NCBI GenBank assembly: GCA_936941155.1
Contig: CAKZJE010000045.1
Coordinates: forward strand, 1 to 64,000
DNA: 64,000 bases
Reading direction: 5' to 3'
Source: an uncultured Methylomonas sp.
Lineage (GTDB): Bacteria > Pseudomonadota > Gammaproteobacteria > Methylococcales > Methylomonadaceae
Of this stretch, positions 4,532-43,800 are shown in pieces. Every line of letters begins with the position of its first letter. Position 1 is the stretch's first letter. A program made the position numbers and the translations under genes. The notes beneath the pieces are model-generated. The model saw nothing but the letters and a program-made list of their open reading frames with translations. It was not told where the DNA came from and did no database searches.

Positions 4532-6808
4532 GTGAAAAATCCATTCATTTCTCAATTATTATTGACGACCTTATTGTTCTCGCCAACGATTAACGCTGCG
4601 GAAAGTTTCGTGGTGCAAGATATTAAAGTCAAAGGCTTACAAAGAACTCCGATAGGAACGGTCTATGACTACCTACCAGTGCGTGTGGGAGATAACTTCT
4701 CTACCGATAAAGTTCCTGAAGCGATTCGCGTGTTATTTAAAACCGGCTTTTTTAAAGATGTGGAATTAGAACGAGACGGTTCTAGTTTAATAGTCACTGT
4801 GGTTGAACGTCCTTCGATTGCCAAAATCTCTTTTGAAGGCAATAAAGACTTAAGCACTGACGAATTAACGAAAGCTTTGAAAAAAATCGGATTGTCTGAA
4901 GGGAAAGTTTTTGACCAGCAAGTTTTAGATAAAGTTGAACAAGAACTTAGACGACAATATTTTAGTCACGGCAAATACGGCTTAAAAATTGAGACAAAAG
5001 TGTCTGACTTAAGTCGAAATCGTGTGATGCTACAAGTTGTGCTCAGCGAAGGACAAGCCGCGAAAATTAAATATATTAATATCGTTGGCAATAAAAGTTT
5101 TGAAATTGAAGCTTTGTTAAAAAACTTTGAATTAAGCCCCTCGCACTTATTGTCTTTTTATACAAAAAACGACCAATATTCTAAACAAAAACTCAGTGCT
5201 GATTTAGAGCGGTTGCGTTCATTTTATTTGGACAGAGGCTATATCAATTTTACAATTGAATCTTCGCAAATTGCGATGACTCCTGATAAAAAAGAAATTT
5301 ACGTCACCGTCAATATTAAAGAAGGCGATATTTTCACAGTCGAAAAAGTTAAATTAGCTGGAAATCTGGTTGTTGATCCACAAGAGCTGATTAAACTGGT
5401 AAAAATTGGCCCCGGCGAAGATTTTTCGCGTAAAAACGCCACAGAAACTTCCAAAAATATTTCAGATAGGCTTGGTGATGAGGGCTATTCATTTGCCAAC
5501 GTGAATATGATTCCAGACATTAACGAGAAGCAAAAAACGGTTGATATTACGTTTTTCGTAGATCCCGGCAAGCGCGTTTATGTTCGACATATCAATATGC
5601 ACGGCAACACAAAAACGCGTGATGAGGTGTTGCGGCGCGAAATGCGGCAAATGGAATCAAGCTGGGCTTCTAACTCAAAAATTGAACGTTCCAAAACACG
5701 TCTGGATAGATTGGGATATTTTGAAAATACCACAGTGGAAATGCCGCCTGTAGTGGGTAGTGCAGATCAAATTGATGTCAACTATACAGTGACCGAAAAA
5801 GCATCTGGAAACTTAACGGCTGGCGTGGGTTATTCTCAAAACCAAGGGATTATTTTTAACGCCAACGTTTCGCAAGATAACGTGTTTGGCTCAGGAAAGC
5901 GGGTTGATTTTACATTTAACAACAGTAACGTTACTACGCAGTATCGGTTTGCATATTTTGACCCGTATTTCACGTTAGATGGTTTAAGTTTAGGCTATAA
6001 CATAGGCTATCTAGCAAGAGATGCTGCTGCCGCTAACCTTTCTAACTATTCAACCGATGTGATGAATACGGGTTTGAATTTTGGTATTCCACTGAATGAA
6101 AACGATAGACTCAGTTTTAATCTTGATTTAAACCAAACAAAACTCAAAACCAGTGATTATTCATCAACTGAAATTAAAAACTTTATCCTAGAGAACGGCA
6201 GCACTTATGCAACATTAAATGCTTCGCTTGGCTGGTCACACGATACACTGAATAAAGCCATTTTTCCAAGCTCAGGTGGACAACAAAGACTTTCTGCTTC
6301 AGGAACAGTGCCGGGCAGTGACTTAACCTATTACAAAGTTGACTATAAACAACAACACTTTTTCTCGATAGCCAAAGACTTTACGCTAAAAATAAATGGC
6401 GAATTTGCTTATGGTGATGGTTATGGCAATACGAAGGGTCTGCCTTTTTATGAAAACTTCTACGCAGGTGGTATAGGCTCGGTGCGTGGATTTAGAGCAA
6501 ATACCTTAGGCCCTCGCGATTCAAACCTAAACTCTTTTGGTGGCTCAAGCAAAGTTTTGGGAAATGCAGAGCTGTTTTTCCCCGTACCTTTTGTGGCAGA
6601 TGCTAAATCAGTGCGCTTAGGTGCTTTTTTTGATGCGGGCACAGTCAGTAATGGTTTAAACATCAAAGATTTAAAATATTCAGTCGGAATGTCAGGCGAA
6701 TGGCTCTCACCTTTTGGTGCATTAGCAATTAGTATTGCCCGCCCTTTAAATGTCAACACAAATGATAGACAGCAATCATTTCAGTTTTCTTTTGGACAAG
6801 CGTTTTAA
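4532..6808 (+). CDS. bamA: Outer membrane protein assembly factor BamA
   Basis: Omp85-family core of the BAM complex, inserting beta-barrel proteins into the outer membrane. 758 residues. A signal peptide (about 1-22, ending TINAAE) is followed by five POTRA domains (about 25-420) and a C-terminal 16-strand barrel. The conserved VRGF motif of strand 16 / loop 6 is visible in GSVRGFRANTLGPRD. The protein ends with a C-terminal phenylalanine (SFGQAF), the outer-membrane sorting signal. The start is GTG at 4532; TATAAT at 4468-4473 is a possible -10 box. skp follows after 113 bases, the usual gammaproteobacterial order. Confidence 0.95.
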   Translation: MKNPFISQLLLTTLLFSPTINAAESFVVQDIKVKGLQRTPIGTVYDYLPVRVGDNFSTDKVPEAIRVLFKTGFFKDVELERDGSSLIVTVVERPSIAKISFEGNKDLSTDELTKALKKIGLSEGKVFDQQVLDKVEQELRRQYFSHGKYGLKIETKVSDLSRNRVMLQVVLSEGQAAKIKYINIVGNKSFEIEALLKNFELSPSHLLSFYTKNDQYSKQKLSADLERLRSFYLDRGYINFTIESSQIAMTPDKKEIYVTVNIKEGDIFTVEKVKLAGNLVVDPQELIKLVKIGPGEDFSRKNATETSKNISDRLGDEGYSFANVNMIPDINEKQKTVDITFFVDPGKRVYVRHINMHGNTKTRDEVLRREMRQMESSWASNSKIERSKTRLDRLGYFENTTVEMPPVVGSADQIDVNYTVTEKASGNLTAGVGYSQNQGIIFNANVSQDNVFGSGKRVDFTFNNSNVTTQYRFAYFDPYFTLDGLSLGYNIGYLARDAAAANLSNYSTDVMNTGLNFGIPLNENDRLSFNLDLNQTKLKTSDYSSTEIKNFILENGSTYATLNASLGWSHDTLNKAIFPSSGGQQRLSASGTVPGSDLTYYKVDYKQQHFFSIAKDFTLKINGEFAYGDGYGNTKGLPFYENFYAGGIGSVRGFRANTLGPRDSNLNSFGGSSKVLGNAELFFPVPFVADAKSVRLGAFFDAGTVSNGLNIKDLKYSVGMSGEWLSPFGALAISIARPLNVNTNDRQQSFQFSFGQAF

Positions 6809-9271: not shown

Positions 9272-9820
9272 ATGCCGCGCTTATTTCTCGCTCTAGACCT
9301 CCCTCAAGAAATCAAACAATCACTCTTGCAACTGCCTCGCGCTTATTCGGGTGCACGTTGGCAAACGAGTGCGCAAATGCACATCACGCTGGTTTTTATC
9401 GGTGATTTGGATAAAAGCCGAATGCCAGAATTGCTGGAAATCTTATCTGAAATCAATGCCGAGCCGCTGAATTTAGCGTTAAAAGGCGTGGATTATTTTG
9501 GTTCAAATCGTTATCCACGCGTGTTATTTGCAAATGTGGAAAAAAATTCTGCCTTAGAGAAATTGCAAAAACAGGTTTATAAAGCGGTGGCGGCGATGGA
9601 TATTGAGTTGGAACGAAAAAAATATATTCCGCATGTGACGCTGGCACGATTAGACCGCACGCCTTATGAAAGTGTTGGGCAGTTTTTGGAAGCGGAGGCG
9701 TTATTCAAAACCGAGAGTTTCAGCATAGCGCAATTTCATTTATACAGTTCCAAACAAACCCGCGCGGGTTCAGAATATCGCATTGAAGCGAGTTTTCCTT
9801 TTGACAGAGAGGTTTTATGA
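9272..9820 (+). CDS. thpR: RNA 2',3'-cyclic phosphodiesterase ThpR (LigT family)
   Basis: 2H phosphoesterase that opens 2',3'-cyclic phosphate RNA ends. 182 residues. Both signature HxTL motifs are present: HITLVFIGD (about 32-40) and HVTLARL (about 121-127). The N-terminus PRLFLALDLP is typical. It starts 3 bases after rnhB. Its last codons lie in a 64-bp stretch repeated downstream of the following parDE pair, and its final residues FDREVL appear to come from the parDE junction; the second repeat copy reads on to its own in-frame stop. The stop overlaps the next ATG (ATGA). Confidence 0.92.
   Translation: MPRLFLALDLPQEIKQSLLQLPRAYSGARWQTSAQMHITLVFIGDLDKSRMPELLEILSEINAEPLNLALKGVDYFGSNRYPRVLFANVEKNSALEKLQKQVYKAVAAMDIELERKKYIPHVTLARLDRTPYESVGQFLEAEALFKTESFSIAQFHLYSSKQTRAGSEYRIEASFPFDREVL
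9738..9801 (+). repeat. 64-bp direct repeat, left copy (3' end of thpR)
   Basis: This segment of thpR is repeated at 10367-10430 with two mismatches. The two copies bracket the parDE pair, as expected if the pair entered the 3' end of thpR and the target was duplicated or regenerated. Confidence 0.9.
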
Positions 9821-10077
9821 TGCAAATTACCTTAAATTCCCATTACGAAATGTTGCTGCAAAACAAATTGGCAACCGGACTTTATGAATCGGTGAATGAG
9901 ATTCTGCAAGAGGCGTTGCATTTATTGGAAGAGCGCGACCAGCTTTATGAGTTGCAAATTACAAATTTACGCAACGAAATTCAGCAAGGTATCAATAGCG
10001 GTGAAGCTACGCCTTTGGATATTGAAGCAATAAAAACACGCGGACGGATTCGATTAGCCCAGCAAAAGGTTCAATAA
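9817..10077 (+). CDS. ParD/RHH-type antitoxin
   Basis: 86 residues. The N-terminal ITLNSHYEMLLQNKLATGLY followed by ESVNEILQEALHLLEERD matches the ribbon-helix-helix DNA-binding fold of ParD antitoxins (strand, then two helices). The charged C-terminal part would wrap around the toxin. Its ATG overlaps the thpR stop (ATGA), and its stop shares one base with the toxin start, so the pair is translationally coupled. ParD proteins normally autorepress their own operon, but no operator can be read confidently inside thpR. Confidence 0.8.
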   Translation: MMQITLNSHYEMLLQNKLATGLYESVNEILQEALHLLEERDQLYELQITNLRNEIQQGINSGEATPLDIEAIKTRGRIRLAQQKVQ

Positions 10078-10367
10078 TGGCGCAGTTGTTAAAACGCCCA
10101 CAAGCCGAAACCGATTTAGACGAAATTTGGTGGTATATCGCGCAAAATAATCCGAAAAATGCCGATAATTTTTTGGATTTTATTTTGGAACAGTGTCTGT
10201 TTTTGACACAGTCGCCCTATTCAGGCAAAAAACGCGATGAGTTATTGCAGGATTTACGCAGTTTTCCGGTGCGCAATTATGTGATTTTTTATTTTCCGTT
10301 GGAAAATGGTGTTGAGATTGTGCGGATTATGCACGGTTCGCGTGATATTGATAAGGTCGTTTTTTAA
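10077..10367 (+). CDS. ParE/RelE-family toxin
   Basis: 96 residues of the RelE/ParE fold. The opening KRPQAETDLDEIWWYIA is the typical ParE helix 1 region (KAxxDLxxIxxYIA), and the end VEIVRIMHGSRDI matches the family's last strands (RVLHGSRD). ParE toxins poison DNA gyrase, while RelE members cleave mRNA; the sequence alone favours ParE. Stop and start overlap with the antitoxin gene (TAATG). The second copy of the thpR-end repeat begins at the last base of the stop codon. Confidence 0.82.
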   Translation: MAQLLKRPQAETDLDEIWWYIAQNNPKNADNFLDFILEQCLFLTQSPYSGKKRDELLQDLRSFPVRNYVIFYFPLENGVEIVRIMHGSRDIDKVVF

Positions 10368-16686: not shown

Positions 16687-17457
16687 TTAATGTTCGCGCC
16701 GTGCGAGTAAATGCACATAACGTCCCATATCGCGATAGGTTGGCATTCGGCAATAGCGATATTCTAATTCAAATAATTCGCTTTCTGAGCTTTGTTGCAG
16801 CGTGTCTTTACTCAGGTAATCATGAAATACGCGAATTCCGGTGTGCGCAGTCACGCTAAAACCTAAGTTTTGTAATTGCTCAAGCACTTCATGCGGATAC
16901 TGCGGATTTGGCGGCGTTAATTTGCTACCTTTGCCCATATAACTATCGTTGAGTAGATTTTTCCATCGCCAATCTCCTTTTAGCGTATTGGTATAGACCA
17001 TCGCGTTGCGATTATAAAACAACAAGGAAAGATAACCGCCAACTTTTACGTTATTTGACACAATTTCTAAACTTGGTAGTGGCTGTGCTAGCCATTCTAA
17101 AACCGCATGAAATAACACTAAGTCGAATTTAGGTAGCTGTGGGGCAAGATTTTGGGCGGCTTGATGATGAAACTGTCCGGTTAAATTGGACTCTGCGAAC
17201 AGTTGCTGAGCGTGGTTTAACATTTTTGCCGATAAATCGCACAAGGTGAGCTGATGACCTTGCGTTGCCAGCCATAAACTGATTTGCGCAAAGCCGCAGC
17301 CTGCATCCCAAATATTTAAGGAGTCTGGAGATTGATAGAAATCTTGCAAATCTTCTTTCAGTAGTTTCAGCCGCCAATCGCCTTTGCGAGTTTCATAAAC
17401 ACGCTGTGCAAACTTATCAATCAGCGTGTCAAAATTTTGGTCTTGAGGAAGTTTCAT
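16687..17457 (-). CDS. cmoM: tRNA 5-carboxymethoxyuridine methyltransferase CmoM
   Basis: SAM-dependent enzyme that methylates cmo5U at the wobble position of tRNA to mcmo5U. 256 residues. Family marks: FAQRVYETRKGDWRLKLL at the N-terminus, SAM motif I as IWDAGCGFAQIS, the conserved FHAVLEWL, and a later block with NTLKGDWRWK. It follows the HNH gene on the same strand after 14 bases, so the defence-like pair upstream may drive it. CmoA/CmoB are not in the window. Confidence 0.9.
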   Translation of the reverse strand: MKLPQDQNFDTLIDKFAQRVYETRKGDWRLKLLKEDLQDFYQSPDSLNIWDAGCGFAQISLWLATQGHQLTLCDLSAKMLNHAQQLFAESNLTGQFHHQAAQNLAPQLPKFDLVLFHAVLEWLAQPLPSLEIVSNNVKVGGYLSLLFYNRNAMVYTNTLKGDWRWKNLLNDSYMGKGSKLTPPNPQYPHEVLEQLQNLGFSVTAHTGIRVFHDYLSKDTLQQSSESELFELEYRYCRMPTYRDMGRYVHLLARREH

Positions 17458-17471
17458 AGGAGTATTGAAAT

Positions 17472-18140
17472 CTAAAGTAAATATTTCAACATAGAATAAA
17501 ACTCTGGTAGTTGCTCTTGTTTCTCATCCAGCAATTCAGCTCTTGTTATTTCACCATTAAGAATTTTTTGTGAATGATCAAGAAAAGAATAGCTTCGAAA
17601 AGATTTTAAAACATCATTATTTAAATCTAAAACAACGTTTATCATATAGTATGCCTTCTCGTTATTATCTTTTGGAAAAACAGCTCCATCTTGGTCATAT
17701 CCGAAATATTGTTCAATATTCGACTCTTCGAGAGGATTCAAAAAAAGAGCTTCAGTATATTCACTATGTTTTACATCTTCACAATATTCAGTTTTATCAT
17801 ATTCTTTATTACAAGCGACAGAAAGATTACAAAAAACATAAGTCAACTCTGGATATTTAGTTCTGGGACGAATATGCTCTATCATGGATTTGCGAATTTC
17901 TTTTTTAAGTTCGCGGATTTCCTCAGTAGATAAGTCTGATAGAACTTTTTTTGCTTTAAGTTTTCGTTGACAATAAATACAAAGCCCTTGTTGGTTTTTT
18001 AATAAGCGATTATGTAAAGCTGTTTTTACATGAATTGGTTTAGTTGGTAAGCTTTCCCATTCACTAGAAAGAAGATGTGTATTTTCACTGATGTAATCAT
18101 CAAACTCCTTACATCTGGAAGTTATTTTTACATATCGCAT
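17472..18140 (-). CDS. HNH endonuclease, Septu PtuB-like
   Basis: 222 residues. A CxxC pair (C54, C57 in LCIYCQRKL), then IEHIRPRTKYPEL with H89, then FCNLSVACNKEY (N105, C110, N111) give the order seen in PtuB/TIGR02646-type HNH nucleases. Its ATG overlaps the stop of the ATPase gene (TAATG), so the two are translationally coupled as in Septu systems, where PtuA ATPase and PtuB nuclease together stop phage. Both genes are much richer in A+T than cmoM and the PP2C gene beside them, which suggests recent arrival. Defence function is inferred from family and layout. Confidence 0.78.
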   Translation of the reverse strand: MRYVKITSRCKEFDDYISENTHLLSSEWESLPTKPIHVKTALHNRLLKNQQGLCIYCQRKLKAKKVLSDLSTEEIRELKKEIRKSMIEHIRPRTKYPELTYVFCNLSVACNKEYDKTEYCEDVKHSEYTEALFLNPLEESNIEQYFGYDQDGAVFPKDNNEKAYYMINVVLDLNNDVLKSFRSYSFLDHSQKILNGEITRAELLDEKQEQLPEFYSMLKYLL

Positions 18141-19516
18141 TATTGATTAAGTTTTCTTTTCATTAATAATAGACGATTGTTAATCCCCATAATTGCAGGG
18201 TCATGTAAACCTAAATCGTATGCGAGCAATTCTATCTTTTTCTCAATCTTTTCTATATCAGCGGGAGATTGTCGAAAAAGTAACGTTATTTCATCAATAC
18301 GATTTTGAGTATCTTCATCTCTTAATTTATATCCCATAATTTCAGCTAATATTCTATTAGGCTCAACACCTTTAGTATATTTTTGTTCTTTTTCCATATT
18401 CATTACCTTGATTTTTCTAGCTTTTTCGTCAAAATAAAGAACAAAAAGGTTTTTTGGATTAACAGAGGCAATAATATGAGGCGAATGAGTAGCTAAAATA
18501 ACCTGATTGTTTTCCCCAGCATTTTGGTAGAGTTTAATGATTTCTCTTTGCCATGTTGGGTGTAACGATGTTTCAGGTTCATCTACTAAAATAAAACTAT
18601 CTTTTATATTTAACTTACTTAACATCACCGCCCTATAATAGAGTTGTTTTTCTCCGCTTGATAAATCATCTATAGAGATTTTTTTCCCATTAGTGCTTTC
18701 AAAAATTACCTTTTCAGAAGTTATGTCAATTAGTTTTGTATTAATTTTTATATTTTTTAAAATTTGGTTAATTTCTTCAACTTTTTTATTAATAGCATTT
18801 TGAGCAGATATTTCCCTATTCTTTAAAACCGCATCTATTATAGAGTCTTTAAGGTATCCTTCAATTTCTTCCTTATGAGAAAAAATATCTACAAGCTTAA
18901 CTATTCCATCTTTTTCATCAGGAATTTTTTTTTCCAAATCATTATTTAATTCAAATGAGTTTGCTACAAAATATAGTGCACCAAAATATTGTGAAGTAAT
19001 GTTTTCGGAAATAATTCCAAATGGAATAAAATCATTTTCACTTACAGCTATTTTTTCATTATTTTTTTGCGATTTATAGCAAAAACTAAAGATTTTTATA
19101 TCGCCTTTTTTTCCTTCAATATTTGATAGCTTTGAGACAACACTTTCTAATAATGGGCAAATATTTTTTATATTACTCTCTCTAGTGTGCTGCTCAGGAC
19201 TAAATATTAATTCATTTAATACACTAATAAGTAACGTATTAAAACTTTGGATAAAATCTAAAGAGCTTTCAAATTCAATTGTAAGTTCCTCACAAAAGAC
19301 ATTATCAATCTTCAAAGCTAAAAAGTCCCAATTCCAGAAACGATTAAAATTTACAGAAAATATTGTTTGTAGTAATTGTAAAATAGATGTTTTTCCACAA
19401 CCATTAATACCTGCTAGTACAATAGTATCCAAAGCTTTACCATCAGAATCAGTAAAATCTAACTCTAAATCATCGAATATTTTGTAATTTTTAATTTTAA
19501 TTTTTCTGATTTTCAT
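18140..19516 (-). CDS. AAA ATPase, Septu PtuA-like (RecF/SMC-type)
   Basis: 458 residues. N-terminal KIRKIKIKNYKIFDDLELDF is the usual opening of RecF/OLD-type ATPases. Walker A AGINGCGKTSIL (about 35-46), an ABC-type signature DDLSSGEKQ (about 283-291), Walker B SFILVDEPETSLHP (about 303-316) and an H-loop ILATHSPH are all present. The middle region is helical and AT-rich in codon use. No TOPRIM nuclease domain is seen, which argues against OLD and for PtuA with a separate HNH partner downstream. The start lies 57 bases below the stop of the PP2C gene, on the same strand. Confidence 0.8.
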   Translation of the reverse strand: MKIRKIKIKNYKIFDDLELDFTDSDGKALDTIVLAGINGCGKTSILQLLQTIFSVNFNRFWNWDFLALKIDNVFCEELTIEFESSLDFIQSFNTLLISVLNELIFSPEQHTRESNIKNICPLLESVVSKLSNIEGKKGDIKIFSFCYKSQKNNEKIAVSENDFIPFGIISENITSQYFGALYFVANSFELNNDLEKKIPDEKDGIVKLVDIFSHKEEIEGYLKDSIIDAVLKNREISAQNAINKKVEEINQILKNIKINTKLIDITSEKVIFESTNGKKISIDDLSSGEKQLYYRAVMLSKLNIKDSFILVDEPETSLHPTWQREIIKLYQNAGENNQVILATHSPHIIASVNPKNLFVLYFDEKARKIKVMNMEKEQKYTKGVEPNRILAEIMGYKLRDEDTQNRIDEITLLFRQSPADIEKIEKKIELLAYDLGLHDPAIMGINNRLLLMKRKLNQ

Positions 19517-19573
19517 AGTAGCTTTATAGAATGTGTAATATAGGAGTTTTAGTGTATTTCGTAATGAAATTTT

Positions 19574-20368
19574 TCATTGCCGAAACATAATCCCAACACT
19601 AATATCGTCGCCGCTGCCTTGTTTTGAAGCCTCTTCCAACCAATCCGGCAATTGTTCTCGCACCCACGCTTGCCCTTCGGTTGTCATAAACTCTGCAATA
19701 TCTAACACAGTTTGCTGAAAATCTGCATTGCTGGAATAGGCATTGCTATAACCATCGCTGGACAGCAAAATAAAACGCGGCGGCTGATTATCGGTAATCG
19801 GCTGAAAACAGCAGCGAAAATCCAGCCAAGGTTTTTTGCCGCACAACGATGTGGTTTCATTACCCAGCAAACGACTATCAGGGGGAATTGGACGTGTTAC
19901 GTTATGGTTGTCAGAAACAGTGAGAATATCGCCGTCGCCTAATTGCCAATACACAATGCAGCGCGGCAAAATCAGCGTGACTAATAACGTTGAGCCAAAA
20001 TAGCGATATTTGTTGTCGTTATTCAACATGGGTTGTTTTTGGCAATACTCATCGACTTTTTCCTGCCAACTGCGCACAATCGCTTTGGGAATATCTTCTT
20101 CGCTTAAGCGTTTGATTTGACTTAAGGAAAAATCTTCCTGATTTTTAAAAGTTTCTTTTAAAACCGTAATTGCAGCTTTCACAGCAAACTTTGCGCCGAA
20201 ATCACTGTGCGTGTATTTCTCTCCGCCATGACCATCCGCCACTGCCATCACGGTGAGCGAATCGCCCGCGCCTTGATAATGGCGAATCGCATCTTGATTC
20301 GGCTTTCCTTTCAGCAAATGCGATGCACCTATCACGCTGGTGCTGATAAGTTGCCAGTTTCTTACCAT
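19574..20368 (-). CDS. PP2C-family serine/threonine phosphatase
   Basis: 264 residues. The metal-binding aspartates of PP2C are present: D26 in KPNQDAIRHY, D45 in AVADGHGGEKY, SSDGYSNAY, and GDDISVGIMF at the C-terminus. FGSTLLVTLIL and YWQLGDGDIL are standard PP2C blocks. It starts inside the last codons of the vWA gene (7-base overlap), so the two are coupled. With the vWA protein and the kinase at 23.9-25.2 kb it makes up a TerY-P triad, where it would remove phosphates placed by that kinase. Target unknown. Confidence 0.9.
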   Translation of the reverse strand: MVRNWQLISTSVIGASHLLKGKPNQDAIRHYQGAGDSLTVMAVADGHGGEKYTHSDFGAKFAVKAAITVLKETFKNQEDFSLSQIKRLSEEDIPKAIVRSWQEKVDEYCQKQPMLNNDNKYRYFGSTLLVTLILPRCIVYWQLGDGDILTVSDNHNVTRPIPPDSRLLGNETTSLCGKKPWLDFRCCFQPITDNQPPRFILLSSDGYSNAYSSNADFQQTVLDIAEFMTTEGQAWVREQLPDWLEEASKQGSGDDISVGIMFRQ

Positions 20369-21087
20369 ACATCCGCCACATCTAAGGTGTTAGCAATAGT
20401 GACTTGTGGCAAAGGTGGAATCGGCACATTGCCTGCGGTTTCTAGCTTCGCTTGGCTGGCAGGCGCGGAGGCGGATTTTAAAACAGCGGTGGAAACCCAG
20501 CGAATGTAGCGAACTAATTGTTCGGCATTATTGGCTTGCAGTGGTTTTAAATCGGGATTGTTAATAAATTTTTCCAGCACATCGTGATCGGCATCCTCAC
20601 CAATCGCAATACCAATTCGCACAGCTTTTTTGCCCCAAGGTAATTCCATTAATTTGGCTAAACCTTCATCAAAATCATCAGTCGGTTGCCCATCTGAAAT
20701 TAACACTAACACGGGTGGTAACGCGCGATCTGTCATGGGTGGCATTTTCAATTGCCCAGCAACCAATAACATCGCTTTACCCATATCGGTTAAGCCGTCA
20801 GCATCTAAATCTTCCCATTTGAATTCAGCAACCGGCGTGGGTTCTTCAATATGCCATTGGGCAGCATCGGAGAATTTGACCGCACGAATTAAAACATTTG
20901 CGTAAGGGTTTTCTTGTGCAATGGTTTGCATGGCAGGAATTGCTTCGCGAATTGCGTGATTTAAGGATTGAATTTTGTCTCCCGCCATTGAGCCTGAGCA
21001 ATCAGTAATCCAGATAAAATGCAGCGGGCGGGTTGCCAATGCGCCGCCGGGACGTTTTTTTTCAATTATTTTTGTTGTAGTGGTCAT
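20362..21087 (-). CDS. TerY-like von Willebrand factor A domain protein
   Basis: 241 residues, cytoplasmic. The MIDAS metal site is complete: DCSGS at 29-33, GLTDMG in the middle, and LISDGQPTDDFDEG. The C-terminal 45 residues are Ala/Pro-rich. TerY proteins bring together partners in tellurite/stress-linked systems; in the TerY-P triad the vWA protein goes with a PP2C phosphatase and a kinase, all found here. A GGAA lies 6 bases before the ATG. First gene of the run vWA, PP2C, ATPase, HNH on the minus strand. Confidence 0.88.
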   Translation of the reverse strand: MTTTTKIIEKKRPGGALATRPLHFIWITDCSGSMAGDKIQSLNHAIREAIPAMQTIAQENPYANVLIRAVKFSDAAQWHIEEPTPVAEFKWEDLDADGLTDMGKAMLLVAGQLKMPPMTDRALPPVLVLISDGQPTDDFDEGLAKLMELPWGKKAVRIGIAIGEDADHDVLEKFINNPDLKPLQANNAEQLVRYIRWVSTAVLKSASAPASQAKLETAGNVPIPPLPQVTIANTLDVADVW

Positions 21088-21290
21088 CGTTATTCCAAAA
21101 AAAGTGCGCTATGCAATGCGCACATCATAATAAATTTTGCCAAGATGTTTTAAAAACTTTAGTTTAAAACAGTCAAAATCGCTTTTAAAGTGGTTGTGAG
21201 AAGAGAGTTATTTGTTGAATTATTTGCTTTGGATAATAGCGGTAGCAAGGCTGCATTGCAATGTTTCTCCATGTAAAGTCTCGTTTAATC

Positions 21291-21411
21291 ATAAGACTTG
21301 TTTTAACAAAGTATTCTTATATATCAAACTGTTATAGTTCAAAAACTGGAGTACAAAACATGTTTTGTACTCCAGCAGATAATAAAATCAACAGTTTAAA
21401 AGAATACTTTT
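21291..21411 (+). repeat. Nested palindromic element, left copy
   Basis: The outer arms AAAGTATTCTT (21308-) and AAGAATACTTT, the inner arms AAACTGTT/AACAGTTT, and a perfect core at 21346-21375 (CTGGAGTACAAAAC and its complement) form a nested hairpin of about 103 bp. A related copy in the opposite orientation lies at 23483-23597, and a half copy at about 56170-56231. It is non-coding and MITE-like in shape. Confidence 0.8.
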
Positions 21412-21488
21412 CAAATTGATTTTTTTATAACTGATTGATTAGTAAGGTTAAAATAAGTCTATAATCTTTTGGGTTGCGCTAAAAAGCG

Positions 21489-21515
21489 CGAGACGCAAAA
21501 TATTGCGTCTCTACG
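21489..21515. repeat. GAGACGCAAAAT hairpin, copy 1
   Basis: GAGACGCAAAATATTGCGTC plus TCTAC. The same hairpin lies at about 23346-23376 and 23655-23685. Dispersed repeat of unknown role. Confidence 0.7.
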
Positions 21516-21606
21516 GTTCAACAAAAAACTACGTTTCTCAAATTAGATGAGGTTTAAGTTGATTTATGCACATTCCTAATCAAAACTAAAACAAGGAGAT
21601 TTCTTG

Positions 21607-22644
21607 ATGAAAACTTATCATTTCGCCGTCTTTATCGGTCGCTTTCAGCCTTATCACAACGGACATCATCACGTTATTACGCAAGGTTTGGCACACGCAG
21701 AAAAAATAATTGTGTTGTGCGGCTCGGCTTATTTATCGCCATCGCATCGCAATCCTTGGTCGTTTGAGCAACGCAAAGCCATGATTTTAAATTCTTTTTC
21801 CAAAGAAGAGGCGCAAAGAATTATCCTGTTGCCACTAATGGACTCTCCTTATAATGAATCCTTGTGGGTGCAAAGTGTGCAAAAGGCTGTCAGCAGCGTC
21901 ACTCAAGCCTGCAATACGCAAGCTAATATTGCATTGCTTGGCAATTGCAAACATCACAGTGGTTTTTATCTAAACATGTTTCCGCAATGGCAGTCGATTG
22001 CCGTTGATAGCGTTGAAAATACCAATGCCACCGCATTGCGCACCGAATATTTTAGCCACGCCGACAACTTTGCAAACAGTCAGAAAGTCTTTAGCCGCCA
22101 CGCGCCCACAGGCACACAACAATTTTTTGCGCAAAACTTTAGTCAAACTGCTTATGATTATATTTTTGCGGAACATAACTTTGTGATTGAGCATAAAAAA
22201 CAATGGCAAGTTGCGCCTTATCCGCCTGTTTTTGTCACAGTCGATGCGGTAGTGATTCAATCTGGACATATTTTGTTAATCAAACGCAAAAATCGCCCCG
22301 GACAAGGATTAGCGGCATTGCCAGGTGGTTTTTTGGATCAATATGAATCATTGCAAGACGCTTGCATTCGTGAATTACATGAAGAAACAGAATTAAATCT
22401 TCCAGAAACGCTGTTGCGTAGTTGCATTACACGCTCGCACATTTTTGATGACCCTTACCGCTCGGCACGCGGACGCACTATTACTCATGCGTTTTTAATT
22501 GAGTTGCCAGCGTGTGAAAATCTGCCGAAAGTCACAGGCAGTGATGATGCGGAAAAAGCATTTTGGATGCCACTGGGTGAAATAAATCCAGAAAAGCTGT
22601 TTGAAGATCATTATTTTATTGTCACACATTTATTAGGTGGATAA
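21607..22644 (+). CDS. nadM: Bifunctional NMN adenylyltransferase / Nudix hydrolase (NadM-Nudix)
   Basis: 345 residues. The N-terminal nucleotidyltransferase half begins with HFAVFIGRFQPYHNGH, with the HxGH-type motif (H17, H20), and SPSHRNPWSFEQR follows; this half makes NAD from NMN and ATP. The C-terminal half (about 195-345) is a Nudix domain with the box GGFLDQYES...RELHEETEL, thought to hydrolyse ADP-ribose. AAGGAG at 21593-21598 sits 8 bases before the ATG at 21607; a TTG at 21604 is just upstream but too close. It links NAD metabolism to the neighbouring TerY-P genes only by position. Confidence 0.92.
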   Translation: MKTYHFAVFIGRFQPYHNGHHHVITQGLAHAEKIIVLCGSAYLSPSHRNPWSFEQRKAMILNSFSKEEAQRIILLPLMDSPYNESLWVQSVQKAVSSVTQACNTQANIALLGNCKHHSGFYLNMFPQWQSIAVDSVENTNATALRTEYFSHADNFANSQKVFSRHAPTGTQQFFAQNFSQTAYDYIFAEHNFVIEHKKQWQVAPYPPVFVTVDAVVIQSGHILLIKRKNRPGQGLAALPGGFLDQYESLQDACIRELHEETELNLPETLLRSCITRSHIFDDPYRSARGRTITHAFLIELPACENLPKVTGSDDAEKAFWMPLGEINPEKLFEDHYFIVTHLLGG

Positions 22645-22860
22645 TTTCTTTTGAAAAAAATTCATAATCCTGTTAATTTCTGCAACAAATTAATCGTAAT
22701 CAAAGTTTAAAGCCGCCCGGTTTAAAAAAGCGCGAAACTTTTGTTGAGTTAATGATATAACAACGGCAGACCTTAAAGGCTAGGTAATCCTAATTAATTT
22801 AGGTACTCAAATACTGACATAAGGAAAACCACAGAATGATTTATTTGCAGGAGAAGCATT
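22645..22860. other. Leader region of the RRM gene
   Basis: 216 bases without a gene. They probably contain the promoter and a long leader of the RNA-binding-protein gene; no clear riboswitch or terminator was identified. Confidence 0.4.
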
Positions 22861-23268
22861 ATGCTTGTTTTTTTTAGACGACTTCCAACAGGGGCTCGTA
22901 AAGCTGATATAGAAAAATTTATCGCCAGTACCGTTAAGGGAGGGTTGTTTTCAAGAAGTGGTGAAATTAAAAGAATCACCATTATTGTACGCCGCAATCC
23001 ACAGCTCAATATGACCGATTATCATGGCGTGGTTGCGATAGAGCCTGATAGCGTTGCCGAGCGCGTGATAAAAAAATTAAATCGCACTCGCTTTAACGGT
23101 AACTATATTGAAGTTCGTCAATATTATATTCGCAGAGTTGCCAATGACCCGCGCAAAAAAAATGGAGTGTCTCAAGCACCCGACAGCCGGCGGCAAAGAG
23201 AACGCCGGCAAGAGATTGAGCAAGTTGCAAGTGTTGAAGCTATCAAAAGTTTTACCCGCAAAGATTAG
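22861..23268 (+). CDS. RNA-recognition-motif (RRM) protein
   Basis: 135 residues. The first 85 form an RRM: strand 1 LVFFRRLP, helix RKADIEKFIAS, strand 2 KRITIIVRR, strand 3 YHGVVAIEP and strand 4 NYIEVRQYYIRR. The RNP1 and RNP2 aromatic positions are partly kept (FF in strand 1, YHG in strand 3). The tail is basic and disordered (RKKNGVSQAPDSRRQRERR), suiting nucleic-acid binding. AGGAG lies 7 bases before the ATG. It sits between nadM and the kinase and is followed by repeats. Target RNA unknown. Confidence 0.8.
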   Translation: MLVFFRRLPTGARKADIEKFIASTVKGGLFSRSGEIKRITIIVRRNPQLNMTDYHGVVAIEPDSVAERVIKKLNRTRFNGNYIEVRQYYIRRVANDPRKKNGVSQAPDSRRQRERRQEIEQVASVEAIKSFTRKD

Positions 23269-23292
23269 CATGTGCTTAATTTGTTAAACGGT

Positions 23293-23379
23293 ATCAACTC
23301 AAAAATAAATTGTTTTCTTGTAGAATCAGCGATTTTTTCTAACGTGTAGAGACGCAAAATCTTGCGTCTCTACGGTTTA
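23293..23379 (+). repeat. Direct repeat of about 87 bp, left copy
   Basis: Begins ATCAACTCAAAAATA and ends in the GAGACGCAAAATCTTGCGTC hairpin. A close copy lies at 23604-23689, on the other side of the nested palindrome. Confidence 0.8.
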
Positions 23380-23482
23380 GAGGCTGTGAAAGTATTTAAA
23401 AACATATCAAATCTCTATTTTTAACTCATTGATTTATATGCGTTGTCGGAGTCAAAAGTCGCGAATTTTGACTCCAAAATCG

Positions 23483-23597
23483 AATACTTTCACTGTTGAT
23501 TTTATTATCTGCTGGAGTGCAAAACCTGTTTTTCACTCCAGTTTTTGAACTATAACACTTTGATATATAAGAATACTTTGTTAAAACAAGTCTGTTA
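23483..23597 (-). repeat. Nested palindromic element, right (inverted) copy
   Basis: Reverse-complement relative of 21291-21411: the CTGGAGTGCAAAACC core, then AACTATAACA and ATATATAAGAATACTTTG, then ACAAGTCT. The core arms have diverged. The pair brackets nadM and the RRM gene as inverted repeats. Confidence 0.78.
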
Positions 23598-23603
23598 AAT
23601 CGC

Positions 23604-23689
23604 ATCAACTCAAAAATAGATTGTTTTCTATAAAGTAAGCGATTTTTTCTAACGTGTAGAGACGCAAAATCTTGCGTCTCTACGGTTTT
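23604..23689 (+). repeat. Direct repeat of about 87 bp, right copy
   Basis: Same as 23293-23379 with a handful of changes; ends in the same GAGACGCAAAATCTTGCGTC hairpin. Confidence 0.8.
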
Positions 23690-23773
23690 CTTTTAAATTT
23701 ATATTTTCAAATCAAATAAAACTTAGCGCATTTTTTTGATGGTAGTGCTTTAAGATTGCTAGAAAGAGATAAC

Positions 23774-23810
23774 AAGGGAATGAGTCAGGCAGCTCATTCC
23801 CTTATTTTTT
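23774..23810 (+). terminator. Rho-independent terminator before the kinase gene
   Basis: AAGGGAATGAG and CTCATTCCCTT form an 11-bp stem with an 8-nt loop, followed by ATTTTTT. It would isolate the kinase gene from upstream transcription and argues against starting the kinase inside it. Confidence 0.8.
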
Positions 23811-23877
23811 GCAGATAAATAAACTCTCTGCCTTTTTGAATACTTTGATACGCGCTGCGTATTTCACGGAATGTCCA

Positions 23878-25209
23878 ATGAACCAACTTCTTAAATTAAA
23901 CCAAATTATTCAACTTAACAACAACTTAACCTGCACCGTAAAAGAATGCTTAGGCGGCGGCGGTCAAGGCGAAGTGTATAAAGCCGATTTAAACGGCACA
24001 GATGTGGCTTTGAAATGGTATTTTTTTGCACAAGCAACCACAGAACAGCAACAAGCATTGGCCGAATTAATTCAAAAAAAAGCTCCCAATGATCGCTTTT
24101 TATGGCCGATTAGTTTGGCGCATTCCCCCGATGTGAAAGGTTTTGGCTATATTATGCCGCTGCGTCCTGCGCACTATAAAAGCATTGCGGATTTAATCAC
24201 GCGCCGGGCTGAACCGAGTTTTCGGCATTTAATTACCGCGACAATGGAATTGGCCGATAGTTTTTCGCAACTTCATGCCAAAGGTTTGTGTTATCAAGAT
24301 ATTTCTTTTGGGAATGTGTTTATTGACCCTGATACGGGACATATTTTGATTTGTGACAATGACAACGTGACAACCAACAAAAACGCCAAAACTGCCAGTG
24401 TGATGGGAACACCGCGTTTTATGGCACCTGAAATTGTATTAGGCACAGCCGCGCCCAGTTCAGAAAGTGATTTGTTTTCGCTCGCGGTCTTACTATTTTA
24501 TATGCTGATGCTGCATCATCCCTTGGAAGGAAAAAAAGAAGCGGACATTAAATGTTTTGATTTGCCAGCCATGAATAAACTGTATGGACGCGAGCCGATT
24601 TTTATTTTTGATCCCAATAATGACAGCAATCGTCCCGTAGCGGGCTATCAAGATAATGCAGAGATTTATTGGGCAATTTATCCGCAGTTTATCAAAGAGT
24701 TATTTACCAAAGCGTTTACTAGCGGTTTGCACGATCCGCAACACGGGCGCGTGCGCGAAAGTGAATGGCGGGCAGCGTTAGTGAAATTACGCGATTCGCT
24801 GCTGTATTGCAGTCATTGTACGGCGGAGAATTTTTACGATGCGCAATTATTAAAAGATAAAGGGCAGTTAAACGAATGCTGGTCGTGTAATGAGGCATTG
24901 CAAGTGCCGCCCCGCATTTTGTTGCAACATAATAATATTGCCATGATTGTGATGCTCAATCACGATACGGAATTATTTGCGCACCATACCAACCCGCAGC
25001 GTTATTATGATTTTTCCAATGCAGTGGCAAAAGTCAATCAACACCCACAAAACCCAAATATTTGGGGCTTAAAAAACCTTTCCGCTGACACTTGGACGGT
25101 TACGCAAGATGACGGCACAATGAAAACAATTGCATCAGGACAAAGCATCACCTTAAGTGCAGGAATTAGTATTAATTTTGGACAAGCGCACGGGCAAATT
25201 CGGGTTTAA
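23878..25209 (+). CDS. Atypical Ser/Thr protein kinase with zinc ribbon (TerY-P kinase)
   Basis: 443 residues. Glycine loop GGGGQGEVY (26-34) and the ATP-binding K46 in VALKWY are present. The catalytic loop reads CYQDISFGN (D141, N146), so HRD becomes YQD and the usual Lys is missing. The metal motif is CDNDN (D160) instead of DFG, and MAPE lies at 182-185. Two Cys pairs (C311/C314 and C334/C337) form a zinc ribbon, and a beta-rich, FHA-like end follows (WGLKNLSADTW, INFGQ). I recall these variants in TerY-P kinases, which pair with the vWA and PP2C proteins found 2.8 kb to the left. The frame is open from 23809, inside a terminator, so the ATG at 23878 is preferred. Confidence 0.85.
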   Translation: MNQLLKLNQIIQLNNNLTCTVKECLGGGGQGEVYKADLNGTDVALKWYFFAQATTEQQQALAELIQKKAPNDRFLWPISLAHSPDVKGFGYIMPLRPAHYKSIADLITRRAEPSFRHLITATMELADSFSQLHAKGLCYQDISFGNVFIDPDTGHILICDNDNVTTNKNAKTASVMGTPRFMAPEIVLGTAAPSSESDLFSLAVLLFYMLMLHHPLEGKKEADIKCFDLPAMNKLYGREPIFIFDPNNDSNRPVAGYQDNAEIYWAIYPQFIKELFTKAFTSGLHDPQHGRVRESEWRAALVKLRDSLLYCSHCTAENFYDAQLLKDKGQLNECWSCNEALQVPPRILLQHNNIAMIVMLNHDTELFAHHTNPQRYYDFSNAVAKVNQHPQNPNIWGLKNLSADTWTVTQDDGTMKTIASGQSITLSAGISINFGQAHGQIRV

Positions 25210-40899: not shown

Positions 40900-43800
40900 A
40901 TGCAACCATCTTTTATCCACCTGCGCCTACACAGCGAATTCTCCCTTGTTGACGGCATCGTCAAAATCAAGCCTCTGGTTAAACGCCTGACAGAACTCAA
41001 CATGCCAGCGGTGGCGATCACCGAACAAGGCAATTTATTCTCGCTGGTGAAATTTTACAAAGCCACACTCGGCGCGGGCATTAAAGCGATTGCCGGCTCT
41101 GATGTTTACATTTTCAACCCTGAAGACCCCAGTAATCCGTATCATTTGACGCTGTTGGTGAATAATAAAGTCGGCTACGTCAGCTTGACCGAGTTAATTT
41201 CCAAAGCTTATCAAGAGGGGCAACATTTAGGCATTCCGATTTTAAAAGCGGAATGGATTGAGGAAAATCACGTCGGATTGATTGCTTTATCCGGTGCAAT
41301 GCAAGGTGAAGTCGGACGCGCATTAATCGCAGGAAAACCAGCTATTGCGGTTGAAAAAGCGCAAAAATGGGCAAGTGTTTTCAAAGACAGTTTTTATTTA
41401 GAAATTCAGCGCGTTGGCAAACTCGATGAAGAACGTTATATCCACGCCGCGATTCAATTAGCAATAGATTTGGATTTACCTGTTGTCGCCACCAATGACG
41501 TGCGCTTTTTGGATAAAAAAGATTTTGCCGCGCATGAAGTGCGAGTTTGCATCAATCAGGGACGGGTGTTAGATGATTCGCGCCGCCCAAAAAATTACAC
41601 CGAGCAGCAATATTTGCGCAGCAGCGAAGAAATGCAGGCGTTGTTTGCCGACATTCCCGAAGCGTTAGCAAACACGGTGGAAATCGCTAAACGTTGCAAT
41701 CTGCAACTCACGCTGGGCGAAAATTATCTCCCCGATTTTCCTGTTCCCGAAGGCATTACTTTAGAGCAACATTTTCGCCAAGCTTCCAAACAAGGGTTAG
41801 AGGAACGCTTGATTGAACATCCGCCGATTGGCAAAGGCACGTTTGCAGAAAACCGTATCGCTTACGATCAACGCTTAGAAATTGAACTGAACGTGATTTG
41901 CCAAATGGGTTTCCCCGGCTACTTTATGATTGTGGCGGACTTTATTCAATGGGCGAAAAATCACGCGATTCCAGTCGGGCCCGGTCGGGGTTCGGGTGCA
42001 GGTTCTTTGGTCGCTTATGTGTTAAAAATCACTGACTTAGACCCGTTAGAATTTGAATTGCTGTTCGAGCGATTTTTGAATCCTGAACGGGTTTCGATGC
42101 CTGACTTTGATATTGACTTCTGCATGGACAGACGCGACGAGGTGATTGATTATGTAGCGCGGCGATATGGGCGCAATCGGGTGTCGCAAATCATCACTTA
42201 CGGTTCGATGGCAGCAAAAGCGGTCATCCGTGACGTGGGGCGCGTACTAAATCACGGTTATGGTTTTGTGGATAGATTGGCAAAATTGATTCCGTTTGAA
42301 ATTGGCATGACGCTCGATAAAGCCTTAAAAGACAGCTCGGAATTGCGCGGGCTGTATGAATCGGATGACGAAGTTAAGAATCTGATTAATATGGCATTAT
42401 CGTTGGAAGGTGTGGTCAGAAATGCCGGAAAACACGCGGGTGGCGTGGTGATTTCACCGACAAAATTGACCGATTTTTCCCCACTTTATTGTGATGAGGC
42501 GGGAAATAATCTAGTCACACAATTCGACAAAGATGACGTTGAAGCGGTCGGTTTGGTGAAGTTCGACTTTTTAGGCTTGCGCACTCTGACCATTATTGAT
42601 TGGGCGTTGCAGACCATTAATAAGAAGAAACGCAGCCAAGGTAAGGCAGAAGTCGATATTGCGCAAATTCCGCGCGATGATGCTGATTCCTATAAATTGC
42701 TGCAAAATGCGCAAACCACCGCCGTGTTTCAGTTGGAATCGCGCGGCATGAAAGAACTCATCAGCCGCTTAAAGCCGGACTGTTTTGATGACATCATCGC
42801 GCTGGTGGCGTTATATCGTCCGGGCCCATTGGAATCGGGAATGGTGGATGATTATGTGAAAGTGAAACACGGTCAGCAAGCCGCTGAATACGCGCATCCG
42901 TTATTAATTCCGGTGTTAAAACCCACTAACGGCGTGATTCTCTATCAAGAGCAGGTGATGCAAATCGCCCGTGAAATGGCGGGCTACACGCTAGGCGGCG
43001 CGGATATGCTGCGGCGTTGTTTAAGCGGTTCAACGCAAGTGTTGGATGTGGCGAGTGGTCAACTCGTCAGCTTGCAAGAAATTGCTGATAATCCAAACTA
43101 TTGGCTAGGACGCAAGGTTTTTTCATTAGATTTAAATAGTCAAAAAATCGTCACTCAACCGATTACCGCGATTTATCCAAACGGTGTACGTCAAGTTTGG
43201 GAAATTACGACTAAAACCCATCGAAAAATTCGAGCAACCGCTGACCATCTGTTTTATACGATACAAGGCTGGCAAGTATTAGAAAATTTTTCTGTTGGTG
43301 ATAGTATTGGTTTAGCAAAACAATTGCCGATTGAACATGCAAGTTCTATTTCTGATGCACAAATTAAATTAACCGCTTATTTAATAGGTGATGGTCATTT
43401 ATCCACTAAAAAACCATCGCATAGTTATTTTTGCAATAGTGATGATGATTTAATTGCAGATTTTAATCAATGTGCAGTTGAATTGTTTGGAAAACCTGCA
43501 CCTTTAGATTATCAATATCATCCGAATAAAAAAACAGTCACTTATGCTCGGATTGGATTTATCACTGAATTTAATCAATGGATTGATAGCCATATTAAAC
43601 GCGCTCATTCAAATGATAAAGAAATTCCGGCATGGGTTTATCAATTATCAGCAAAACAATTAGCGTTATTTTTAGGTATTTTGTGGTCAACGGATGGCAG
43701 TTTTGATACTGGAATTGGACATACGGATTATACTTCGACTTCGCGTTTATTAATTGAACAATTACAGCATTTATTATTACGCTTAGGAATTGTTGGTTTA

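What the first reader, a model, noticed from the sequence alone, without database searches (positions are those of the whole stretch)
17472..25209. TerY-P phospho-signalling genes joined to a Septu-like ATPase/HNH pair
vWA (TerY-like), PP2C, PtuA-like ATPase and PtuB-like HNH lie in one minus-strand run with a 7-base overlap, a 57-base gap and a 1-base overlap. The third TerY-P member, a kinase with YQD and DND motifs and a zinc ribbon, is 2.8 kb away in the other direction. Triads of vWA, PP2C and kinase are known; Septu is a known defence pair. Their direct junction suggests either that phosphorylation controls the defence pair, or that a low-GC defence islet inserted behind PP2C.
Basis: partly seen in the sequence, partly recalled or inferred. 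Interest (0 to 1): 0.75.

Follow-up and report, generated by a model that had tools for sequence, protein, structure and literature searches.

The report
Septu defence pair dropped behind TerY-P
A two-gene anti-phage cassette (Septu) has landed directly behind two genes of an older protein-phosphorylation switch in one methane-oxidiser lineage; the junction was seen in no other genome examined and looks like chance placement rather than a new combined system, although the switch itself has unsuspected partner proteins elsewhere in the genome.

Summary
The kinase's real start is probably 23878, and ptuB is followed after 14 nt by cmoM.

The vWA/PP2C/kinase triad is resident in the genus: both congeners carry it (kinase 92/82%, vWA 93/87%, PP2C 85/73% identity). 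The Septu pair is not: it has no orthologue in either congener, GC3 of 0.18-0.20 against 0.36-0.47 for its neighbours, and its nearest relative (about 55-60% PtuA identity) sits in a genome without a triad, directly behind a transketolase gene.

None of 32 other TerY-type vWA loci examined (19 of them close triads) has a PtuB nearby. Related Septu pairs often sit co-directionally between unrelated host genes (FtsK/LolA, RlmD/LigA), and this genome has five PtuB-like loci. PP2C is probably one more host gene with a Septu behind it. Read-through transcription is possible; control of Septu by phosphorylation has no comparative support.

The triads' recurrent partner is an uncatalogued seven-helix, ~107-aa domain fused to variable parts (LRR, MORN, FGE, Lcl_C, Clp N-domains). 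It lies beside at least 15 of the 19 close triads and is encoded in trans in this genus. That is the more interesting lead.

The parts
20362..21087 (-). TerY-like vWA protein, 241 aa, with a MIDAS-type motif (DCSGSM, LTDMG, SDG)
   Evidence: 93/87% identical in congeners G002/G001
19574..20368 (-). PP2C Ser/Thr phosphatase, 264 aa; 7-nt overlap with the vWA gene
   Evidence: PF13672 5.2e-41; DGHG and terminal SGDD invariant in the family
23878..25209 (+). TerY-P kinase, YQD/DND catalytic motifs, C-terminal four-Cys zinc ribbon and a beta-rich tail; conserved start at 23878 (ORF list starts at TTG 23809)
18140..19516 (-). PtuA-type ABC/AAA ATPase, 458 aa, Walker A GINGCGKTS, signature LSSGEK, Walker B VDEPETSLHP
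   Evidence: PADLOC PtuA1 8.6e-73; motif columns invariant; GC3 0.18
17472..18140 (-). PtuB-type HNH nuclease, 222 aa, CxxC (C54/C57), EH (E88/H89) and N105
   Evidence: PADLOC PtuB1 5.3e-36, TIGR02646 57.6 bits against cut-off 52.15
19517..19573 (-). 57-nt PP2C-ptuA junction: no terminator-like site and no promoter-like site above the scan threshold on this strand
17458..17471 (-). 14-nt ptuB-cmoM junction
   Evidence: sequence
16687..17457 (-). cmoM, tRNA wobble-uridine methyltransferase gene, unrelated host gene downstream of Septu
   Evidence: NF008264 3.7e-68 (below its curated cut-off); present without Septu in relatives
21294..21395 (.). 102-nt dispersed repeat, arm 1, between vWA and nadM
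23492..23593 (.). 102-nt dispersed repeat, arm 2 (inverted, 95%), between the 22861-23268 gene and the kinase
21604..22644 (+). bifunctional NMN adenylyltransferase/Nudix gene, housekeeping, lying between vWA and kinase
   Evidence: NF003786 460.6 bits, above cut-off 397; near cmoM/abh genes in G002

Best explanation
Two independent modules lie side by side. (1) A genus-resident TerY-P phospho-switch: kinase and PP2C act in opposition with a metal-binding vWA protein. Its likely partners are proteins with a conserved ~107-aa helical N-terminal domain, encoded elsewhere in this genome. Shown: conservation, motif integrity, linkage in other genomes. Inferred: that these proteins are substrates or adaptors. 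(2) A recently acquired stand-alone Septu pair (PtuA ATPase + PtuB HNH nuclease) inserted co-directionally between the PP2C stop and cmoM, probably expressed at least partly by read-through from the vWA-PP2C promoter. It should work like other Septu pairs: a PtuA-PtuB complex that becomes an active nuclease on phage infection (in an E. coli relative, cleaving tRNA-Tyr). No functional coupling beyond shared transcription is needed.
For: The triad is conserved in both congeners; PP2C in G001 is followed by a different gene and cmoM there has other neighbours. No Septu orthologue in G001/G002, whereas the closest relative found (54% by tblastn, 59-60% aligned) is in triad-free G010, directly behind a transketolase gene. 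GC3 contrast. No PtuB beside 19 other close triads or 13 more distant vWA loci. Septu pairs squeezed into unrelated gene runs: FtsK-PtuAB-LolA, RlmD-PtuAB-LigA, LpxD-like-PtuAB-CcmA, PtuAB-LipB, PtuAB-ModB, AsnB-PtuAB. Five PtuB-like loci in this genome. The triads' recurrent neighbour is the helical-domain family, present in trans here and, among 37 relatives, only in the three triad genomes.
Against: No terminator separates PP2C from ptuA, so the four genes could be one transcript. In the class sample both close-triad genomes (G000, G258) also carry PtuB (Fisher p 0.004; about 0.06 without the window's own genome), and G024 carries both, though in G258 and G024 they lie on different contigs. 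G002's contig ends 115 bp after PP2C and several loci are cut by contig ends, so absence is not proven everywhere. PtuB was not searched separately in G001/G002.
Confidence: 0.85

Rival explanations
1. TerY-P phosphorylation directly regulates PtuA/PtuB: the kinase silences or arms the nuclease, PP2C reverses it, so the five genes form one regulated defence system.
For: Tight same-strand spacing, no terminator. Precedent: TerY-P is tightly built into CoCoNuT operons and associated with restriction systems (PMC11090510).
Against: No recurrence in 32 other vWA loci; Septu absent where the triad is conserved and the triad absent where the closest Septu occurs; a different partner family tracks the triad.
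Confidence: 0.05
2. Transcriptional coupling only: Septu uses the vWA-PP2C promoter, so its dose follows TerY-P expression without any protein-level link. (This is compatible with the best explanation; its confidence overlaps with it.)
For: 57-nt gap without terminator or convincing promoter; the same promoter-poor placement in other Septu loci.
Against: Not measured; promoter scanning is weak, since hit numbers equal the shuffles.
Confidence: 0.55
3. Ordinary defence clustering: TerY-P is itself a defence system, and two defence modules share an island by selection for joint transfer.
For: TerY-P-type triads protect against phages (PMC10889362, PMC7699616).
Against: The triad is genus-conserved with native composition, and the genes around it are mostly housekeeping; no other defence system was recognised by reading the surrounding ORFs, though the whole window was not scanned with a defence library.
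Confidence: 0.1

Closest known systems
Septu (type I, PtuA1+PtuB1)
   Same: Two-gene ATPase+HNH pair, 1-nt overlap, catalytic motifs; the H89-N105 spacing of 16 equals H75-N91 of the tested E. coli B88 Septu (PMC13096335)
   Different: Divergent sequence; scores below NCBIfam's retron-Ec78 PtuA/PtuB equivalog cut-offs; sits between PP2C and cmoM
TerY-P triad, zinc-ribbon kinase type (CoCoNuT-associated; PMC11090510)
   Same: vWA + PP2C + kinase with C-terminal zinc ribbon
   Different: Kinase split off by 2.8 kb on the other strand; no McrB-like GTPase or helicase among the neighbours scanned; beta-rich tail after the zinc ribbon
TerY-P stand-alone defence (Gao et al. 2020, via PMC7699616 and PMC11090510; P. 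aeruginosa variant, PMC10889362)
   Same: Same three activities
   Different: The described kinase carries an OB-fold instead of a zinc ribbon; PADLOC models gave no hit for this vWA or PP2C
Retron Eco7/Ec78 PtuAB effectors
   Same: Homologous PtuA/PtuB
   Different: No room for a retron RT or ncRNA: ptuA starts 57 nt after PP2C

Membership tests
Septu | PtuA ABC/AAA ATPase with Walker A/B | tested here: met
   PADLOC PtuA1 8.6e-73; K42, D312-E313 invariant
Septu | PtuB HNH nuclease directly downstream on the same strand | tested here: met
   PADLOC PtuB1 5.3e-36, H89/N105 invariant, 1-nt overlap
Septu | Anti-phage activity | not testable with these tools
   needs phage challenge
Retron Ec78-type system | Adjacent reverse transcriptase and ncRNA | tested here: not met
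   57-nt and 14-nt junctions to PP2C and cmoM; PtuA 94.6 bits against cut-off 500, PtuB 71.4 against 150
TerY-P triad | TerY-like vWA, PP2C and Ser/Thr kinase with intact motifs | tested here: met
   one vWA, one PP2C and one kinase match per congener genome at the thresholds used, plus one weak partial PP2C hit in G002
TerY-P triad | Three genes adjacent | tested here: not met
   kinase 2.8 kb away on the opposite strand; in G002 one gene separates a co-directional kinase from vWA-PP2C, and in G001 the kinase is on another contig
TerY-P triad | C-terminal zinc ribbon (CoCoNuT type) on the kinase | tested here: met
   four invariant Cys
TerY-P stand-alone defence type | OB-fold on the kinase | tested here: inconclusive
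   C-terminal model pLDDT 52.9, mostly strands
CoCoNuT type II/III-A | CnuB/CnuC/CnuH-E genes in the operon | tested here: not met
   none among the ten neighbouring proteins scanned; rest of the genome not searched

The most novel reading that the evidence does not exclude
TerY-P triads of this clade act through an uncatalogued seven-helix adaptor or substrate domain fused to swappable C-terminal sensor or effector parts (LRR, MORN, Sel1, FGE/Lcl_C lectin-like folds, ClpA and ClpX N-domains). The vWA-kinase-PP2C switch then controls a modular set of client proteins, encoded in trans in this genome, and Septu is a bystander.
Probability: 0.5. Interest if true: 0.65.

Novelty: new member of a known kind. 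Interest (0 to 1): 0.35.

Why it matters
It shows how an operon-like junction of two defence-linked modules can arise by insertion and be mistaken for a combined system. Septu pairs are often found between unrelated host genes, so their neighbours are weak evidence of function. The same comparison points to what these TerY-P triads probably act on: a family of proteins sharing an unannotated helical domain, which makes the long-open question of TerY-P substrates directly testable.

Tried and rejected
Recurrence of the junction: class sample of 369 genomes, phylum sample of 398, 61 relatives, the order of G258 (40 genomes), plasmids and viral contigs; no PtuB was found beside another TerY-type vWA. 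Retron membership rejected (no RT or ncRNA space). CoCoNuT membership rejected for the immediate neighbourhood. An AAA_21 ATPase near the L010 triad (5114-6304) was considered as a second ATPase-linked case, but no PtuB is present there. A fold for the kinase tail could not be established. The helical domain matches no Pfam or NCBIfam family, no PDB sequence convincingly and no fold in the PDB or BFVD at E<=0.001.

Full report
OBSERVATION. All four minus-strand genes and the plus-strand kinase are present at the stated coordinates with the stated 7-nt overlap, 57-nt gap and 1-nt overlap. Family searches agree: VWA, PP2C_2, AAA_21/AAA_15 and Pkinase in Pfam, PtuA1 8.6e-73 and PtuB1 5.3e-36 in PADLOC, TIGR02646 above its cut-off for PtuB. 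Catalytic features are intact: PtuA K42, D312 and E313, PtuB H89 and N105, and kinase D140, N145, D159-N160-D161 plus four zinc-ribbon cysteines, invariant over 13 homologues. YQD/DND in place of HRD/DFG is therefore a family feature, not decay. The kinase alignment puts the start at 23878.

HOST AND HISTORY. The genome is a 4.26-Mb assembly; its two congeners match MAGs labelled Methylococcaceae bacterium bin_45 and uncultured proteobacterium LaPlata_bin-4072. Both congeners keep the triad: kinase 92/82%, vWA 93/87%, PP2C 85/73%. In G002 the order is kinase, one Rpn/transposase-like gene, vWA, PP2C, all co-directional. In G001 vWA-PP2C is followed by a PEP-CTERM-type gene and the kinase is on another contig. 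cmoM in G001 and G002 has other upstream neighbours. Neither congener has this Septu: their best PtuA hits are weak partial matches (9e-10 and 2e-4), whereas G010, with no triad gene detected, has a relative at 2e-133 sitting directly behind a transketolase gene with a 1-nt overlap. ptuA and ptuB have GC3 of 0.18 and 0.20, all other genes measured 0.36-0.47. The 2.8 kb between vWA and kinase carries nadM and a small gene, bounded by 102-nt inverted copies of a repeat with many further copies in this genome; repeat-mediated rearrangement is a plausible cause of the split, but this is inferred.

RECURRENCE. In a class sample of 369 genomes, TerY-like vWA (E<=1e-20) occurs in 5 and PtuB in 23. 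Where both occur outside the window they are 64 kb apart (G116, a distant vWA) or on different contigs (G258). A profile for PtuB found none in the 12 independent close-triad neighbourhoods or the 13 more distant vWA neighbourhoods first examined, nor in seven further triad loci fetched from the order of G258. Several of these loci are cut by contig ends. G024 has both systems on separate contigs. In the class sample the two close-triad genomes both carry PtuB (Fisher p 0.004; about 0.06 if the window's own genome is left out), a weak sign of genome-level co-occurrence without linkage.

SEPTU'S HABIT. Twenty Septu-type loci were inspected. Leaving out those inside restriction or other defence-like runs, many are pressed co-directionally between unrelated host genes: FtsK-PtuAB-LolA, RlmD-like methyltransferase-PtuAB-LigA (gaps 6 and 3 nt), an LpxD-like gene-PtuAB-CcmA-like gene in this same genome (2 and 8 nt), PtuAB-LipB (6 nt, this genome), PtuAB-ModB-like (4-nt overlap, this genome), AsnB-PtuAB (6 nt), transketolase-PtuAB. 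The window's own genome holds five PtuB-like loci. PP2C-PtuAB-CmoM fits that pattern. The table is descriptive, from mechanical ORF calls, and was not tested against a null.

WHAT THE TRIAD WORKS WITH. Reading the neighbours of close triads showed a recurrent extra gene whose first ~107 residues are conserved and whose remainder varies: MORN, LRR, Sel1, beta-helix, FGE-sulfatase, Lcl_C, Tim44-like, and on a Methylomonas plasmid the ClpA N-domain and the ClpX zinc finger fused in front of it. It lies beside 9 of the first 12 close triads, the exceptions being the two congeners and L018; it also occurs beside one more distant triad (L128). In seven new loci not used to build the profile it lies beside six, the seventh (L195) running into a contig end. 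In this genus it is encoded in trans: G000 has an FGE form and an Lcl_C form, and G001 and G002 have relatives. Among 37 relatives only the three triad genomes have it (Fisher p 1.3e-4, but they are congeners). In the class sample 4 of 369 have it: both close-triad genomes plus G092 and G363, where no triad was found. The domain is predicted as seven helices at pLDDT 91.6 and has no match in Pfam or NCBIfam, nor a significant match in PDB sequences, PDB folds or BFVD. Whether the 2012 Ter-system survey (Anantharaman et al., cited in PMC11090510) already noted it could not be checked, as that paper was not found in the library.

MECHANISM. Most likely the triad and Septu are independent. Septu should act as in characterised pairs: the PtuA/PtuB complex is activated on infection, and in E. 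coli B88 it cleaves tRNA-Tyr, needing both Walker and HNH residues (PMC13096335). Expression by read-through from vWA-PP2C is plausible because the 57-nt gap holds no terminator-like and no above-threshold promoter-like site on that strand, but that scan has little power. The triad, a kinase opposed by PP2C with a metal-binding vWA, more probably acts on the helical-domain proteins.

COMPARISON. TerY-P triads protect against phages (PMC7699616, PMC10889362), and zinc-ribbon versions are built into CoCoNuT operons (PMC11090510). This triad is of the zinc-ribbon type, without CoCoNuT genes among the neighbours scanned. The Septu is stand-alone, not a retron effector set. Both are members of known kinds; their junction is a single occurrence in what was searched.

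LIMITS.

Noticed in passing
L148:7264-8526(-), L149:7739-8548(+) (own genome contigs C32, C18); L010, L011, L012, L013, L014, L017, L019, L119, L124, L128, L192-L194, L196-L198: Uncatalogued ~107-aa seven-helix N-terminal domain beside most close TerY-P triads, fused to variable C-terminal parts; no Pfam, NCBIfam or significant PDB fold match.
   Followed up: yes
L119:18827-19708 and 19701-20321: On a Methylomonas plasmid the same domain is fused behind a ClpA N-domain and behind a ClpX zinc finger, hinting at a link between TerY-P and Clp proteolysis.
   Followed up: partly
L136, L137, L138, L135, L172, L173, L175, L183, L076: Septu pairs sit co-directionally, often within a few nt, between unrelated host genes (FtsK/LolA, RlmD-like/LigA, LipB, ModB, AsnB, transketolase, ThyA).
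   Followed up: partly
L123:7050-9289: PtuA-like ATPase plus a downstream small gene lying inside a type I-B CRISPR-cas gene run on Arcobacter cloacae plasmid pACLO.
   Followed up: no
window 21294-21395 and 23492-23593: 102-nt dispersed repeat with about 20 near-full or partial copies plus shorter pieces in the genome; here an inverted pair bounding nadM and a small gene between vWA and kinase.
   Followed up: partly
window 40900-45681: DnaE-type ORF of 1593 aa that appears to contain an intein (insert beginning at CLSGSTQVLDV and ending before CMGKKKPDEMAKER).
   Followed up: no
L076:8291-8929: The G010 ptuB reading frame holds an in-frame stop over the stretch homologous to the window's ptuB; decay or an assembly error.
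   Followed up: no
window 9817-10367: Small gene pair resembling a ParE/RelE-type toxin and its antitoxin.
   Followed up: no
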